A DNA stretch of 64,000 bases from Lepidurus packardi (lineage: Eukaryota; Arthropoda; Branchiopoda; Notostraca; Triopsidae), in NCBI GenBank assembly GCA_023053545.1, contig JAKZAN010000004.1, forward strand, positions 558,001-622,000, in the 5' to 3' direction. Every line of letters begins with the position of its first letter. Within the stretch, counting starts at the first letter, position 1. Of this stretch, positions 13,383 through 50,060 are shown one piece after another. The translations under genes and the position numbers were made by a program. Under the pieces are notes generated by a model, which ran no database searches, was not told the DNA's origin, and was given only the letters and a program-made list of their open reading frames with translations.

Positions 13383-16007
13383 TAGGGGTCGTAATCGATT
13401 AGGATTTCACTAATCGATTAATCGAAAAGAAAAAAAATTCGATTACCGATTAGTTAACGATTAGCACTTAATTTTCTTAATCGATTACTACTAATCGATT
13501 AGTTAGCGATTAGTGCCATTTTTAAAAAATTGATTACTAATATCGATTATTGAACTACGATTAATTATCGATTATCAACCACTGCAGTCCATATTTCCCT
13601 AACGACTAGCTCAACGATTAGCACTTTGTTAGGGCAATCGATTTGTTAGAGACTACTGTCACATTTTGTCACATTTTCTTAAAAGCGAACTATTTTTTAC
13701 TGAAAATTTCCGTTTATTTGCACCAAGTGGACATATGATTGTCAAAAGTGCGTAAAGAAAGCTTATGAAGTGTTTGTAGTTACTACAAGAAACAATTCAA
13801 GGAACACAACACAACAGGAACGCGTCACTCCCTATTTCTAAGAGCGAAAACGTCAAAGTGGCGCAGTGAGCTCCTTAGGAAAAGGAGATCATCAACTAAT
13901 TCTGGAGAAAGATTCGCCCGCTTTTTCGTGATTGTATTGCCAGCATCATTGAAATTTCTTTCAGAAGAAACAGATGTTGCGGGAACGCAGAGGAACATTT
14001 GTGCCAGCAAAGAAAGGCGAGGAAAGGTCGGTGAGTGATTCCTCCACCACTCTAGAGGATTTTCAGTTATCGTGACTTTTTTCAGTACTCTGTACTGGGA
14101 GATTTCGTCAACTGTTTCCTCGTCGTCATCGAAGGAGGCGTAAAACTGCGCCAGTTTGTTTTCAGTTGTGTGCAAAACTTGCGGCTCCTCCTTCGGAACC
14201 AGAATATCCAGTTGCTCCCTCATGTATTGCCAAATGCTTTCCTTTTCTTGGTCTTGTTTGATAAATACAAGATTCTTGAATCTTGGGTCAAGAGCAGAAG
14301 CGAGTAAAATGAATTTACTTGGCTCGTTGGTAAGCCATTTGTCTTGAATTACTCTGAGCATAACCTCGCTGCAATTCACAATTTCTGGGAGCAGCAGCGT
14401 TGATTCGTTGAGCTCCCTTAACCGCTTATGAAGCTCTAAAATCGTAGGATAGACGTACGAAACAGTGCTGTACGTATCACCACCTAGCTCCACCGTCACG
14501 TAGCTGAAGGGCTCCAAGATCTGTATAACTTGCTCTACAAGCATCCATTCTCGAGATCCGATCTTATACCTTTCATATACTCTTCTACTTTTAAAGTCAT
14601 TGCCGATAAGCCCTTCATATATTGGGAATGCATTCTGCAAAACCTTAATGCGCTGTAGCTTCTCGTATTCGGAGTTCCACCTTGTTTGTACAGATTGAAT
14701 GACGCTAAGCGGGTGGTTAGAAATTTTTTCGAGCTCTTGTGCCTTCTCCAGGATCTCTTTCTGTTTTGGAGAACGTTTAAAGATGGATACCAATCCCTTC
14801 GTCTTGTCTACCAACAGTTTTAATGGCTCCAGCCCTTTGTTGACAACTAACTGCAGCGTATGAGCTGCACAAACAAAATGTTCGATGTCTTCGAAATAAA
14901 AGTCCTCGAACGCCTTTTTCATGTTCGCAGCACCATCCGTTACTCCGGCAATAATCTTGTGCTTAATCTCTAGTCTTTCAAGCTCGTGAGAAAGTTCTTC
15001 AGCGATACTTTCCCCTGTATGGGGGCTTTGGATTTGCACTGTAGCGTAATTAACAGAGCGAAATTCAAAAATTTCCGAAATCCAGTGCAGCGTGATACTG
15101 ACATACGAATCATTTGCAACTGACGTCCATATATCGGACGTCATAGCCACTTTATTCGCTTCCGTTTCTAAAATCTTCTTGAGTTCCCTTCTTGCAAGAG
15201 CGGCGCAATTTAAAATTTCTTGCCTTGCGGAATGGACGGATGGCATTCGCCATTTTGGATTCAGCTTCTTTAAAAATGCATCAAAGTGAGGATTCTGTAG
15301 AATATGAAGTGGCTGCTGGTCGTCCACTACAAAGCGCAACAAACGGCGAGTATGTTGCATTTGAGACTTATCGGTAAACGGCTGCGCGTCTTTAACAGAA
15401 ATTGCGAGGGCCTGACGAATGTCTTGATTTCTGCTAAGAGGGCGTTCAACTCCCGATATTTTTTCTTCATGTTTTTCTTTACTGAGATGATGCCGGTACT
15501 GGAGATGGTTCATTTGGTTGGTTGTATTTCCTAAACATGCGCACGTTAGCCACTGTATTTTAAACCTAATCGTTAAATGTTACATGCTACCTTTCTTCTC
15601 AAGAACAGTGTTGCAATTTTGGTAGGTGCAGATTAGTTTGTTTACCATTGTAGGATGGGAGAGAAAGTTGTGGTGGACCCACGAGCGCTTAGCCGTTCGA
15701 CTACGCTTTGTAGCTGGCTCCGGTGTTTTTGAAAGCTCACTTTCCATAGAGGATTCGCTCTCTGACTCAGAATCACTTTGTGCAACTACCTGCATAGGTG
15801 TTTTATCTTTGCAAGACGCCATAAGGAACAATGGATTGCAACAATCACCAAAAACCGTGTAAAAAATGAGGGAAAAGTTGGATAAAGCTCTGCAAGAAGA
15901 TAGATTCGGTCAGGGTAAGAACTACTAATCGATTAGTCAACTTAGTAATCGATCATCGGTACTAATCGATTAATAATCGATGTCTGACCAATCGATTACG
16001 ACCCCTA
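13383..16007. mobile_element. hAT DNA transposon, apparently complete (2625 bp)
   Basis: The ends are inverted repeats beginning TAGGGGTCGTAATCGATT; both sides are rich in ATCGATTA motifs. It is flanked by perfect 8-bp target duplications CTTCAAAC (13375-13382 and 16008-16015), the length typical of hAT. It carries one two-exon transposase gene on the minus strand. The perfect duplication and open transposase suggest recent insertion. Confidence 0.95.
13825..15831 (-). CDS. hAT transposase (BED finger, RNase H-like, hAT-C dimerisation)
   Basis: Exons 15831-15591 and 15530-13825, joined at phase 1 over a 60-base intron, encode up to 648 aa. An acidic N-terminus (SDSESESESSMESE) precedes a BED finger split by the intron (SWVHHNFLSH, CTYQNC, HLQYRHH). 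The core has EANKVAMTSDIWTS, GVTDGAANMKKAFED and CAAHTLQLVVNKGLEPL, the conserved hAT catalytic-fold blocks. The C-terminus FLCVPATSVSSERNFNDAG...LSPELVDDLLFLRSSL is the dimerisation domain. No internal stop is seen, so the enzyme may be active. It is closest in style to ZBED/hAT-Ac proteins. ATG 15822 (MASCKDK) is an alternative start. Confidence 0.92.
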
Positions 16008-30283: not shown

Positions 30284-33200
30284 TTAAGAGTAAGTCTTTG
30301 CACTGGTGCATGTGTCAGTTCTAGATTGGGGTTTCCTTTTCTTCCAAGTTCGCTCAGAGACGAACACAATAATAGAAGTAATCCAACCCATGGCTAAAAT
30401 AGCAAACACCGTTTGCACTTGAACGATTGTCAACGGAGTGTCTTCGTACTTTGGAAGTAGGTTGGCCATTTGGTAGCAGGGAATGTCTCGGCAGTAATTG
30501 CGGTAAAGATACCTTGTTACACCGCCTTCAAATGCCATCATAATCCTACGCAAAAGAAGGTTCATTGCCTTATCGTTTTTGTCCGAGTTTTATGAATTTA
30601 CTTTTTCTTGAAAGCCTGGGTCAAGGATTTGACGTCCTTCGATATGTACCACCCCGTAATCATAAGTTGTGAATCTTCGGGGAACCGGATTGCCAATTTG
30701 CATTTGCCACTGGAGAGAAAAAATTGCACTAGAAGACTTTCTGCAACCGGCAGTGCCTGTATGGAAAATTTTGACTTAAGGCTGCCGTATATCATAGCTA
30801 GGTATAGGCGATTAGCATGGTGAATTTCGGAACAACTTCTTCGTTAAAACTAGCACATTTCATAAAAAAAATTCTTTCAAAGTAAGTTTGAGCATATAGT
30901 GAAAAACCAATTCACCTGTTTTCCGATTAATAATAAATTAGTAGCATTCAAATTAAAGTTTGCAACTATGTGAAATACACTGCCTAAAATTAAGTCCCTT
31001 TAATTGGGCACTAGCTGCTAAAAAAAGCCAAAAAAAAATAGATTGATTTCAAATACGACAAGCCTTTTTCAAGAAATCGTGTTCCGAAAGTTCGACGACT
31101 CGATTTGGGCATTGCGCTGCTACAGCAAACTGCGTTGACAGGTTGTACTTTTCAGAAGCAAAACAAGCGTGGAAACTTGGCCGGCAATTAGCAATTTGTT
31201 TTTTTTTTACTTTCTTGCACCAGTCTCTCCCAAAACACTAGCAAAGATCAGTGACATCTGTGACTGTTTCGGATCAGTAAGCTAAAGTATATACGGGAGT
31301 CTTAAGAGTCTGCAGCAGCGAAGCCTGTGATCTCTCAGTCCGGGAAAAGCGACTTAGATATACATGTAGCAGAAAACCCCACTTTCTTAACATAAGTTGA
31401 TCTAAGCTATGATTAAAAATAACCTAACCTAGCGTTGCAACCGTATGACGTAACCAAATTTTCTAAGATTAGAATGTGAATCTAATCCCGGAATTTTGTT
31501 ACCAATGATCGAACTTGACTACATTAAGCAATTAAGGATAGTAGGTCGTTCTAAGAAATAGTTTTTGGCCTGTTTACAGTCATAACTTACTACAAGAAGG
31601 CCATATCCTCCTTTTGAAATCATGTCAATAGCGACTTCGTTGCTTGTGACGATGCACGCAGGACATCTGCGAAGCATATCACCCAGTTGCTTTTCGTAAC
31701 CAGATTTTGCTTGCTAATTAAAGAACAATTTTTAGCCTTTACCCTTGAAATGCTCCCAAGCTTACCAGGAGGCTAGTCGTAAAGTAGAAGTTTTCGTTCG
31801 AAACAGGTTTTACGGTGTCCTGAACGGCGAAATCCGCGAAATTCTTCACGGGGAAATCCGCTATGGGAACCGTTATGAAGGAAATCATGATTGAGGTGTA
31901 CCCAAACGCTATTACGAGGGCTCCAATATTCCAACCGGTTAAAAGAAATCGGCCAGCTAGGTTTCGTGGACTGAACCCTCCTATAATAGAAGATGTGCTA
32001 TGAAAAACATGAAGATTTTTTGGAAAAGAATACAATTTAATTTTTTGTCTGGACGAGGAAGAGGGAAGAAGTTATTAGGATGGGTTATTTGCGTTAAGAT
32101 TGAAATTTAGTACCTTGGCCAATGATTAGGGATAAGTTATAAAGTAGACTTAAGCTAAGTTCGTTTGTCATATTCAACCTCTTGGGAGCCAGCCATATAA
32201 TGACTGAAAGAATTAGGATGCTTAAGATGATTGCCAACCAAACCTGAATTAGACTGGTTCTTAGTGCTTAACGATCCATATCAGTGTTACTCACCCAACC
32301 CTGGAAGGGCTTTACATTCGAGAGCAACTCGTACTGTACTTTAGGTGGTGGCAGAACTATAACATAACTGCTGTAATAAGTAGGCCAGACAGTGTCGAAT
32401 ATGGTGGTCCGTTCGCTAGTGTATACAATTCCAGCGACCGTGATATCTGTCTCCTGGGCAATACCGAATGAAATAGTTACTAATGTACACACTTAAAATC
32501 TAAAGTTCCGGTATAGCTTCGCTTGTTATCCAACCCACCGTTAGATGGCGTGCACTGTTTTGTATGGATGCATCAACAGGTTCTCCAGTTTTGGAAATCC
32601 GAGATAAAAATGACACTAGTGTGTATTATGGTTTCAAAACGTTCTCGGAAAACGAGTGACAAACGGGTGTCACTCGAATTCAAAAATGGTAGTTGGATTG
32701 TAAATACATTAGTTTAGGTTAGGTTAGGTTAAGTTAGGATAGGTTAGGTTAGGTTAAGTTAGGATAGGTTAGGTTAGGTTTAGGTTAGGTTAGGTTAGTT
32801 TAGGTTTGATTAGGTTAGTTTAGGTTTGATTAGGTTAGTTTAGGTTTGATTAGCTTAGGTTAGCTTAGGTTAGGTTATTAAGTTAGGTTAGGTTATTATG
32901 TTAGGTTAGATTAGGTTAGCTTCACGATTCTCATCAATTTTCGTTGATGAGAGTCGCTAAAATTTTAATTTTCTTTCACTCCACTAGCTGAAAAAAGAAG
33001 AATTCATTGTTGGCCTATGACACACTACTGTCATGTTTTACCCAGGGACACTTTACGTACGTATGTAACTAAATCCGGAGAACGTGTTGGGATGCATAGA
33101 AACGCGCATTGCTTCTGCGTATAACTTTAGAACCATATCCTCAATTTGCATGCAATTTATCTTAAAAGTTATTTTAAAATAAGGTCAAGGGCGTAACAAG

Positions 33201-45659: not shown

Positions 45660-46982
45660 ATGTCCAAACCGTCAAAACTCTTGGTGGTCACCGTCCCTTC
45701 TGCATGGTTCCTTCGCAAATGGAAACGCATGGTTCTTTATAGCTATTTATTAGCGATTGCAGTCATTTCCTTTTTCTTGATCCTGGTCGTGCTAGCTGGT
45801 GCTCTCTACCCAAGCTTTAACCAGGTTGAGCGTATTTTAAATGGCAATTCTGTCGATAAACCTGGAATGGAGGTATTCACATTCTAATAGCTTGATTTTA
45901 ACATCTAAAGTAAATGCCTTGCAAAATTGATCTTGTTTATGAAGGATGGCTTAGCCAGGCCCAAGCTGATTCTCTATTGGACCAAATTCTTCGATGCGAT
46001 CGATTTCCATGTGGGGTTTGGCGAGAAACCGTTCAGTGGCTGTCCCGTCAAAAACTGCCTGTCGACCAACAACCGATCCATGTTGCATCTCAGTGATGCC
46101 GTTGTATTTCACATAGGCGACATTCGCTCTATCGATATGCCACCTTTTCGCCTCCCTCATCAGCGCTGGATTTTCTTCTATATGGAGCCCCCTCATCATA
46201 CCGTTCCTTTGCATAATTATGCCCACTTATTTAACTGGACCATGACGTACCGCGCCGATTCGGACATTTACCATCCGTATGGTAGAACATGGCCTATCAC
46301 TAGAAGGATCCCGACTCAGGTCAATACCGTGAAGGTGACCGAATTGATTTCGGATCTCAATGAATTCCGTCAGCTGAGAAATTCTCCCAGAGATGATGTG
46401 GTGAATCTGCGCTTCGATTACGACGCTTTTATTAAGCGTAAGACGAAAGGTGTAGCTTGGTTTGTTTCAAATTGCGTCACAACCAGCGGAAGAGAAAACT
46501 ATGTTCACAAGCTGAGGCAATTCATTGATGTCGATATCTATGGAAAGTGTGGTAACCTCTCCTGCGTCGGTCGCAATTCTTGCTCGGAAATGGCTGGTAA
46601 AGACTACAAGTTTTATTTGGCTTTTGAAAACTCCGTTTGTGTGGATTATGTCACTGAAAAGTTTTTCAATATGTTGCACCATGGAGTAGTACCCATTGTT
46701 TTCGGACTTGAGGCCCATAGCCAAATTGCACCGCCCAAGTCGTTTATTGATGCTGACTCGTTTGAGTCCCCCGAAGTGTTAGCACAGTATTTGCAGGTCC
46801 TGATGAACAATGATACACTTTATAAGGAATACCTCCAATGGAATGACAAATTCAAACCGAAAGTAGTAGGTGGATGGTGTACCTTTTGTCAAAAGCTTAA
46901 CGATCCCAATCAGGGTACGTCCATGTATAGTGACATTCATCAATGGTGGTTCAGCAAAGGTCATTGCGAACTAAGAAGCTAA
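45660..46982 (+). CDS. Alpha-1,3-fucosyltransferase (GT10), intact
   Basis: Exons 45660-45872 and 45945-46982 (72-base intron, phase 0) encode 416 aa. It is a type II Golgi membrane protein: a short basic cytoplasmic tail (KLLVVTVPSAWFLRKWKRM), a signal anchor at about residues 25-48 (YSYLLAIAVISFFLILVVLA), a stem, and the GT10 catalytic domain. Diagnostic motifs are GVAWFVSNCVTTSGRENYV, the family signature KFYLAFENSVCVDYVTEKFF (about residues 290-310) and HGVVPIVFG. The enzyme transfers fucose from GDP-fucose to GlcNAc-containing glycans. Conserved Cys pairs near both ends of the domain are present (GWCTFCQKL). The first exon start is the only in-frame ATG upstream of the anchor. Confidence 0.93.
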
Positions 46983-49612: not shown

Positions 49613-49752
49613 TATAGACGTTATTGGATGGATGTACATCCATCCATCTAATAACATTAATACCATATGTAATCATATGTAATAACAATAATCCGGAGAA
49701 CGTGTTGACAAATCTTACAGTCAGCGTCGCTTCTTCTTGTGTTTGTTCTGTG

Positions 49753-50060
49753 CAAAACGTCTCCGTATTTAGTGACAAACGGGTGCAATGTATCCGACGG
49801 TACAATTTGTTGAACATTTTCTTCAGCTAACGGAGTAAAAGAAAGTACAAGTTTTAACGATTCTCATCAACTTTCGTTGATGAGAATCGTTAACCTTAGC
49901 TAACCTAGCCTAACCTAAGCTAAAGCATTTCCAACCCAACTGCCAATTTTCAACTCGAGTAACACCTGTTTGTCATTGTTTTTCGGGAGAACGCTTTGCA
50001 ACAATTATACACACTGAGTGTCATTTTGAACTCTGGGTTCTGAAAATGGAGAACCTGTTG
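49753..50060. mobile_element. Diverged copy of the telomere-repeat TIR element
   Basis: It is the reverse-orientation counterpart of 32574-33089. The right end GGAGAACCTGTTG (50048-50060) and a decayed left end (CAAAACGTCTCCGTATTTAG, 49753) frame a hairpin with perfect 18-bp arms (49854-49893, loop TTTC) and a short TAACC tract (49894-49925). Aligned body segments include GACACT/AGTGTC and CGTTCTC/GAGAACG. No target duplication remains. Another isolated end, ATCCGGAGAACGTGTTG, lies at 49691-49707. Confidence 0.75.

What the first reader, a model, noticed from the sequence alone, without database searches (positions are those of the whole stretch)
32574..33089. Transposable element that carries telomere-like TTAGG repeats and a hairpin
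Ends, target duplication and contents can all be read directly: 13-bp inverted ends, perfect 8-bp GGATGCAT duplication, about 210 bp of TTAGG-type repeats and a hairpin beside them. A second, inverted and diverged copy at 49753-50060 keeps the same order (end, body, tract, hairpin, end). Interstitial telomere-like arrays in this genome could therefore be spread by a cut-and-paste element, and not left by chromosome fusion. I know of no described family with this layout.
Basis: partly seen in the sequence, partly recalled or inferred. Interest (0 to 1): 0.8.

Follow-up and report, generated by a model that had tools for sequence, protein, structure and literature searches.

The report
Jumping element carrying telomere-like repeats
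A short mobile DNA element without genes of its own, apparently moved by a KDZ-type transposase encoded elsewhere in the same genome, carries a stretch of the chromosome-end repeat (TTAGG) and has scattered it along the chromosomes, so most internal telomere-like patches in the sampled part of this genome sit in jumping or dispersed DNA and are not scars of chromosome fusion.

Summary
The observation at 32574-33089 holds: 13-bp inverted ends (12/13), perfect 8-bp duplication GGATGCAT, 211-bp TTAGG-type tract, hairpin. It is one copy of a large MITE family. Of 40 parsed rows (39 places), 28 have perfect 8-bp duplications and 4 more have them plus one extra C.

The likely parent is a KDZ (Kyakuja-Dileera-Zisupton) transposon. 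C5:11226548-11234991 has the MITE's exact 25-bp right end at both termini, encloses a PF18758 match and a zinc-ribbon gene, and is flanked by AATTTCTT twice. A tempting hAT parent proved to be a nested insertion.

The fetched long KDZ stretches lack the tract. Diverged MITE copies mostly carry short tracts; 31 young copies carry 140-375 bp although their flanks lie 0-2.7% from consensus. I read it as a repeat that grew on the element and travels with it.

Of 42 (TTAGG)3 clusters listed on contig C1, 28 lie just inside ends of this family, 11 in other mobile or dispersed repeats, and 3 are unassigned.

MITEs carrying tandem repeats are known; a KDZ MITE carrying the telomere motif, and several unrelated elements doing so in one genome, did not appear in my literature listings.

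The parts
32566..32573 (+). left target-site duplication GGATGCAT
   Evidence: sequence; other copies have other perfect 8-mers
32574..32586 (+). left terminal inverted repeat CAACAGGTTCTCC
   Evidence: with up to 1 mismatch (so both ends counted) 721 genome hits vs 92 control
32635..32676 (+). inner subterminal repeat CAAAACGTTCTC..TGACAAACGGGTGT, like the zinc-gene-side end of the long KDZ element L071
   Evidence: in an older-type MITE copy the 40-column alignment to L071 has 33 identities, 5 mismatches and one 2-nt gap; similarity of the MITE left part to L071 beyond the TIR exceeds all 300 shuffles
32674..32711 (+). pre-tract stretch, like the leader and start codon of the zinc-ribbon gene of L071
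   Evidence: two older copies score 42-43 against L071, 0 of 1000 shuffles reach it; the window copy scores 30 (3 of 1000 reach it); against the C5 element ends none of the three is above chance (85-438 of 1000)
32709..32919 (+). TTAGG-type tract
32925..32956 (+). hairpin beside the tract
33016..33089 (+). right subterminal region and end, homologous to the termini of KDZ transposons; outermost 25 bp identical
33077..33089 (+). right terminal inverted repeat GGAGAACGTGTTG
   Evidence: 285 exact genome hits vs 2 control
33090..33097 (+). right target-site duplication GGATGCAT
49753..50060 (-). older, incomplete copy: left end 50048-50060, short tract, hairpin 49854-49893; far end not a TIR, no duplication found
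49695..49707 (+). isolated right end GGAGAACGTGTTG with a diverged subterminal stretch to its left
   Evidence: sequence, by eye

Best explanation
It is a non-autonomous miniature (MITE) derivative of a KDZ-superfamily DNA transposon. Its right end is that of an about 8.4-kb two-gene KDZ element (KDZ transposase at one end, a small zinc-ribbon protein convergent at the other). Nearly everything between the ends was lost; a short TTAGG-type stretch and a hairpin sit where the genes were. The KDZ transposase presumably mobilises it in trans, with 8-bp target duplications. The tract is probably a passenger: it lengthened on the element from a few units to dozens and is seeded at each new site by transposition, producing interstitial telomere-like arrays without chromosome fusion. 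Shown here: ends, duplications, family size, long KDZ elements sharing the right end, tract hypervariability, absence of the tract in the fetched long KDZ stretches. Inferred: mobilisation in trans, the growth (not shrinkage) direction, slippage or unequal exchange as the cause of growth, and the passenger role.
For: Different perfect 8-bp duplications in 28 of 40 rows (26 distinct; mispaired control 8 of 1560), 4 more with an extra C, 2 with one mismatch. C5:11226548-11234991: the exact outer 25 bp of the MITE right end at both termini, PF18758 inside at 11228547-11228987, zinc-ribbon gene inside at 11234298-11234791, perfect duplication AATTTCTT. L090: the same 25-bp end followed inward by frames of which one hits PF18758, E 3.4e-16. 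Independent route: the 9.4-kb TIR pair C1:4227345-4236729 was listed from end coordinates (note) before the KDZ search, and a KDZ hit fell inside it; by my arithmetic (16 hits x 9385 / 108,557,554) chance is about 0.1%. Tract 140-375 bp among 31 young copies whose flanks lie 0-2.7% from their consensus. Tract length rises with identity to the window copy (24 of 30 loci usable, chosen by an exact left end and not by tract; rho 0.69, p 2e-4). Longest exact TTAGG run in five fetched stretches with long KDZ elements is 1-2 units. Copies with only 2-4 units also have perfect duplications (L046, L056, L059).
Against: 14 of 16 KDZ matches, the C5 one included, contain at least one stop codon (introns or decay), so no working transposase is shown. 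The MITE's outer left end (first about 60 bp) was not found on a long element beyond the 13-bp TIR, apart from a MITE-like piece in L071; similarity to the C5 element is clear at the right end only, and the pre-tract stretch matches L071 but not C5. The hairpin was found only in a MITE remnant beside L070, and the adjoining roughly 60 bp gave only matches of 12-18 nt. The L072-type KDZ element shares only the 13-bp TIR with the MITE (beyond-TIR score not above shuffles) and shows no duplication. 6 of 40 rows lack a recognisable duplication. Within the parsed, mostly young set, tract length does not track divergence (rho 0.02, n 32).
Confidence: 0.8

Rival explanations
1. The tract was captured as true telomeric DNA (telomerase or telomeric filler at a break left by abortive gap repair when the parent lost its genes) and has since shortened and decayed in older copies.
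For: The genome's own telomere appears to be TTAGG (C3 ends in 13 pure units). Tracts sit between the two halves of the MITE and in the centre of several other elements. Vertebrate interstitial telomeric repeats inserted at double-strand breaks are in print (PMC8537989, PMC2246262; starts of abstracts in the listing).
Against: The copies least like the window copy (left flank under 86% identical) have only 2-5 exact units yet keep the same anchors; the one long value among the 10 diverged usable copies (L032, 271 bp) spans a tandem copy.
Confidence: 0.3
2. The arrays are relics of chromosome fusions or other rearrangements.
For: They have the telomere motif and occur far from contig ends.
Against: 28 of 42 clusters on C1 lie just inside ends of this family (null mean 0.15; one by inspection) and copies have target duplications; 11 of the other 14 lie in other mobile or dispersed repeats.
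Confidence: 0.03
3. The MITE is a hAT derivative (8-bp duplication).
For: 8-bp duplications; a transposase-like ORF, which I took for hAT by eye (no Pfam match at E 0.001), lies between the ends of one copy (L061).
Against: That ORF belongs to a nested element with its own ends CAGGCCCGTA.../...TACGGGCCTG and its own duplication GGTTATAG inside the tract; a longer copy of it elsewhere (L068) has none of the MITE ends within 2 mismatches. The termini CAACA do not fit the hAT pattern (recalled).
Confidence: 0.03
4. The tract is functional: it binds telomere proteins or the transposase and aids transposition or targeting.
For: The 31 young parsed copies all carry it, with expanded length.
Against: Older lineages with 2-4 units also transposed with duplications (L046, L056, L059). 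A roughly 100-bp copy without tract (L044, duplication GGGTTTTT by eye) is no proof, because a later deletion between GTGT repeats would give the same product.
Confidence: 0.1

Closest known systems
KDZ (Kyakuja-Dileera-Zisupton) DNA transposons
   Same: KDZ domain (PF18758) in long elements with the same right end; CA..TG termini; 8-bp duplications, as stated for Zisupton and Dileera in PMC12730594 (passages read)
   Different: The MITE has no gene; the long elements carry a second zinc-ribbon gene with no Pfam match over the cut-off (weak DZR, E 0.007-0.014). Subgroup not determined.
MITEs carrying internal tandem repeats: Xenopus Xmix/Xstir, lepidopteran (GTCY)n mobile microsatellites, Xenopus tropicalis miDNA4
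   Same: A short non-autonomous element gives rise to or spreads a tandem array (as summarised in PMC9659126, passages read; the primary papers were not read)
   Different: Here the unit is the host's telomere motif and the parent is KDZ.
Satellite-like arrays carried by Helentrons in Crassostrea gigas (PMC7492417)
   Same: Dispersed short tandem arrays carried by non-autonomous elements (title and start of abstract)
   Different: Rolling-circle elements, not the telomere motif.
Short interstitial telomeric sequences inserted at double-strand breaks in vertebrates
   Same: Short interstitial arrays of the telomere motif, not fusion relics
   Different: Those are inserted during break repair (starts of abstracts in the listing); here the arrays are dispersed by transposition with target duplications.
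TRAS/SART telomeric non-LTR retrotransposons of insects
   Same: Mobile DNA associated with TTAGG (passages)
   Different: Those target telomeric repeats; this element carries the motif and inserts elsewhere.

Membership tests
MITE (non-autonomous class II element) | short, terminal inverted repeats, fixed-length target duplication, many copies, no transposase gene | tested here: met
   no frame of 130 aa or more overlaps the window copy
KDZ superfamily | 8-bp target duplication (Zisupton, Dileera) | tested here: met
   MITE; long element C5 AATTTCTT; none seen for L072; criterion from PMC12730594
KDZ superfamily | KDZ transposase domain inside elements with the same ends | tested here: met
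   (same right end; stops inside 14 of 16 matches)
KDZ superfamily | subterminal sequence shared between MITE and KDZ element beyond the TIR | tested here: met
   right end: L070, L090 and C5 element; left part: L071; not met for the L072 type, and not for the pre-tract stretch against C5
KDZ superfamily | mobilisation in trans by the KDZ transposase | not testable with these tools
   needs a transposition assay
KDZ superfamily | placement within Kyakuja, Dileera or Zisupton by transposase phylogeny | not tested
   no tree was built
hAT superfamily | hAT transposase bounded directly by the same termini | tested here: not met
   nested insertion with its own ends and duplication
P element superfamily | P-type transposase inside TIR pairs | tested here: inconclusive
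   28 PF21787 matches; I compared only those on C1 and C2 by eye with the listed ends; one lay about 5 kb from an end, about what chance gives; no enclosing pair seen
MITE with riding tandem repeat | internal tandem array varying in length between near-identical copies | tested here: met
   140-375 bp at 0-2.7% flank divergence (31 young copies)

The most novel reading that the evidence does not exclude
Several unrelated DNA transposon types of one genome (two KDZ types, an IS1595/Merlin-like element with the tract in a probable transposase intron, a dispersed palindromic family and another palindromic element) have each independently gained telomere-motif tracts, often in their centre. This would point to one recurrent process, telomerase or telomeric filler acting at transposon break repair, that stamps telomere repeats into transposons, which then seed interstitial telomeric sites genome-wide.
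Probability: 0.3. Interest if true: 0.8.

Novelty: new variant of a known kind. Interest (0 to 1): 0.6.

Why it matters
Interstitial telomere-like arrays are often read as fusion scars or break-repair footprints. That mobile elements containing telomeric repeats could spread them has been proposed (Bolzan 2017, as cited in PMC9693754). Here it can be read at sequence level: ends, duplications, likely parent transposon and tract change in one genome. Cytogenetic TTAGG signals inside chromosomes of such species should not be taken as fusions without checking for these elements. It also gives a KDZ element with two genes and an abundant MITE progeny.

Tried and rejected
hAT parent: held, dropped after (nested insertion). 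P elements: no enclosing pair seen on C1 and C2 (by coordinates). Fusion relics: not supported for 39 of 42 clusters. L069 (long palindrome) first looked like a chance match of the TIR; later found about 97% identical to KDZ element L072. Covariation test of the hairpin: not run; by eye the two hairpin versions differ without compensating changes, and the loop occurs in both orientations, which suggests a DNA palindrome more than a conserved RNA. On re-checking I withdrew the claim that L044 proves transposition without the tract (a later deletion explains it) and therefore lowered the main confidence from 0.85 to 0.8 and raised the functional rival from 0.07 to 0.1.

The end-pairing script paired some copies through the inner repeat and so lost at least four copies with perfect duplications seen (L038, L046, L056, L059); counts are therefore low. 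Rows dropped: 54 of 94 candidate pairs (left end over 1 mismatch or the inner repeat, reverse orientation, right end over 2 mismatches, length under 150). One place, C1:7971071, is counted in both orientations among the 40. 8 of these 40 could not be split into flank, tract and hairpin, leaving 32, one of which (C1:11473892) is an old 23%-diverged copy. In one search, 6 of 30 loci were not usable (L044, L048, L051, L054, L055, L059: hairpin missing, or copy cut or nested); L032 and L056 have inflated lengths, and L052/L053 are two halves of one composite. Clusters are from the first 100 of 458 listed places only (C1, 1.18-11.96 Mb), and end lists were exact matches only. Literature statements rest on ten searches, seen as listings, and passages of four papers.

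Full report
OBSERVATION. The stretch 32574-33089 has the ends, the perfect 8-bp duplication, the 211-bp TTAGG-type tract and the hairpin described. The second copy is real but incomplete: left end, short tract and perfect hairpin, but no proper right end and no duplication found.

FAMILY. The window lies in an unnamed 108.6-Mb genome of 344 contigs. The element search gave 577 first-look candidates, of which the tool scored 40. Of the 30 best loci, 23 show perfect 8-bp duplications at the match ends. Of 30 loci chosen only by an exact left end (first listed on C1), 13 show a perfect 8-bp duplication at a right end within 1.5 kb, 2 more have it with an extra C, 2 have one mismatch, 3 have none and 10 have no right end in reach. 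The two sets overlap. In the joint parse 28 of 40 rows are perfect, 4 have an extra C, 2 have one mismatch and 6 have none; mispaired flanks agree in 8 of 1560. Among 26 distinct duplications position 1 is a purine in 20 and position 8 a pyrimidine in 20; otherwise no strong preference. Copies also occur in tandem and head to head with 8 bp between them.

PARENT. A transposase-like ORF inside one copy (L061) suggested a hAT parent, but it lies in a nested element with its own ends and duplication GGTTATAG. I then paired distant ends by coordinates. Three long pairs (L069, L070, L071) encode related zinc-ribbon proteins near one end, and cysteine motifs in L070 suggested KDZ to me. The test was a search for PF18758: 16 matches, 15 over the cut-off, one of them inside the 9.4-kb pair on C1 noted beforehand; 14 of the 16 contain stop codons. 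In L090 the exact 25-bp MITE right end is followed by frames with a KDZ match. Finally C5:11226548-11234991 has that 25-bp end at both termini, a KDZ match and a zinc-ribbon gene inside, and AATTTCTT on both sides. KDZ and zinc-ribbon matches face each other about 5-6 kb apart at five further places (C16 twice, C38, C3, C1); on C58 and C100 neighbouring matches lie on the same strand. The MITE's right end aligns over about 74 nt with both termini of the C5 element, the outer 25 being identical. Its inner left repeat and pre-tract sequence match the zinc-gene end of L071 up to the start codon in older copies, more weakly in the window copy; the pre-tract stretch does not match the C5 element above chance. 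The outermost left part of the MITE was not found on a long element beyond the TIR.

TRACT. The fetched long KDZ stretches have no TTAGG run beyond 2 units. In loci chosen only by an exact left end, identity of the left flank to the window copy correlates with tract length (24 usable of 30, rho 0.69, p 2e-4): 9 of 10 diverged copies have 20-114 bp (the tenth, 271 bp, spans a tandem copy), 14 close ones 55-377 bp. Among 31 young parsed copies the flanks lie 0-2.7% from consensus while tracts span 140-375 bp. Variant units keep a shared order at the tract start, so tracts are copied with the element and then change length fast. The direction (growth) is inferred; shrinkage in old copies is not excluded.

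WHERE INTERSTITIAL TTAGG LIES. (TTAGG)3 occurs 458 times, its reversed control once. The contig C3 ends in 13 pure units, consistent with TTAGG telomeres. The first 100 places form 42 clusters on C1: 27 lie within 450 bp inside an exact element end (null mean 0.15, maximum 4 of 1000), one more is an old copy (L034), and one has the end of the L072-type KDZ element, one mismatch (L073). Four are related to each other; one of them has coding stretches on either side of the tract, of which the second hits the ISXO2/IS1595 transposase domain (PF12762, E 5.2e-13) and the first has no Pfam match, so the tract looks like part of an intron; two fetched copies on C4 and C6 are identical to C1 copies over hundreds of bases. 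Five share a dispersed palindromic family (a direct repeat at the ends was seen in one at most). One is a palindromic element with a 7-bp direct repeat (L077). Three (L074, L076, L084) are unassigned.

MECHANISM. Most likely: KDZ transposase acts in trans on a deletion derivative; insertion makes 8-bp duplications; the TTAGG stretch is carried along and lengthens by slippage or unequal exchange. Copies with only 2-4 units have duplications too (L046, L056, L059), so a long tract is not needed; whether any tract is needed is open. How the first units arose, from a seed in the element or from telomeric filler at break repair, is open; recurrence in unrelated elements makes the second worth testing.

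KNOWN. [quoted passage not shown] KDZ duplications of 8 bp are in PMC12730594 (passages). In the listings of ten searches (named in Tried and rejected) I saw no KDZ MITE with telomeric repeats and no genome in which several DNA transposon families carry the telomere motif; most subscription papers, and Repbase, were not searchable.

Noticed in passing
C5:11226548-11234991, C16:1152167-1158215, C38:49864-56120, C1:4227345-4236729 (L072): KDZ transposons here carry a second, convergent gene for a small zinc-ribbon protein with no Pfam match over the cut-off; in the C5 element both genes begin with the same ATGAATAAAAGGAATATTA about 200 bp from the ends.
   Followed up: partly
L085, L075, L079, L081, L087, L088: An IS1595/Merlin-like transposon has a TTAGG tract between two coding pieces (probable intron); relatives with (TTAGG)6 are 100% identical over hundreds of bases on C1, C4 and C6, suggesting recent spread.
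   Followed up: partly
L078, L080, L082, L083, L086: Dispersed palindromic family (arms with GACACAAGGACGAC-like sequence) with TTAGG units in the centre.
   Followed up: partly
L061:797-2830: Internally shortened transposon (ends CAGGCCCGTA, duplication GGTTATAG) nested in the TTAGG tract of a MITE copy; longer relative in L068.
   Followed up: yes
L044 (C1:3556634): A roughly 100-bp MITE remnant between copies of GGGTTTTT, ending in GTGTTG only; looks like an internal deletion between GTGT repeats (by eye).
   Followed up: no
C5:12032190-12033266 and C1:4181971-4182808: Head-to-head MITE pairs; in the first the 8 bp between them is the reverse complement of the outer flank, in the second the outer flanks are inverted copies of each other.
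   Followed up: no
C1:3190203, 3349826, 7971467, 9885520: MITE copies in clusters at several places share the same 8-mer AAATTTCC as duplication.
   Followed up: no
L069 (C1:8354078-8359048): Palindromic KDZ relative whose flanks share 7 bp (CAACCGG), not 8 (by eye).
   Followed up: no
L031-L060 hairpins: The hairpin loop occurs in both orientations among copies, as if the palindrome had flipped; in some copies it is missing.
   Followed up: no
window 13825-15513 (-): Open 562-aa hAT transposase frame (PF05699, E 4.2e-19).
   Followed up: no
window 204-29700: Cluster of about eight similar small genes starting MKFFLIAAFLAAASAA, perhaps cuticle-like secreted proteins (my guess).
   Followed up: no
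window 45927-46982 (+): Open fucosyltransferase frame of 351 aa (PF00852, PF17039).
   Followed up: no
L089 (end of C3): A repeated subtelomeric unit ending in TTAGG units lies directly before the terminal pure TTAGG array.
   Followed up: no
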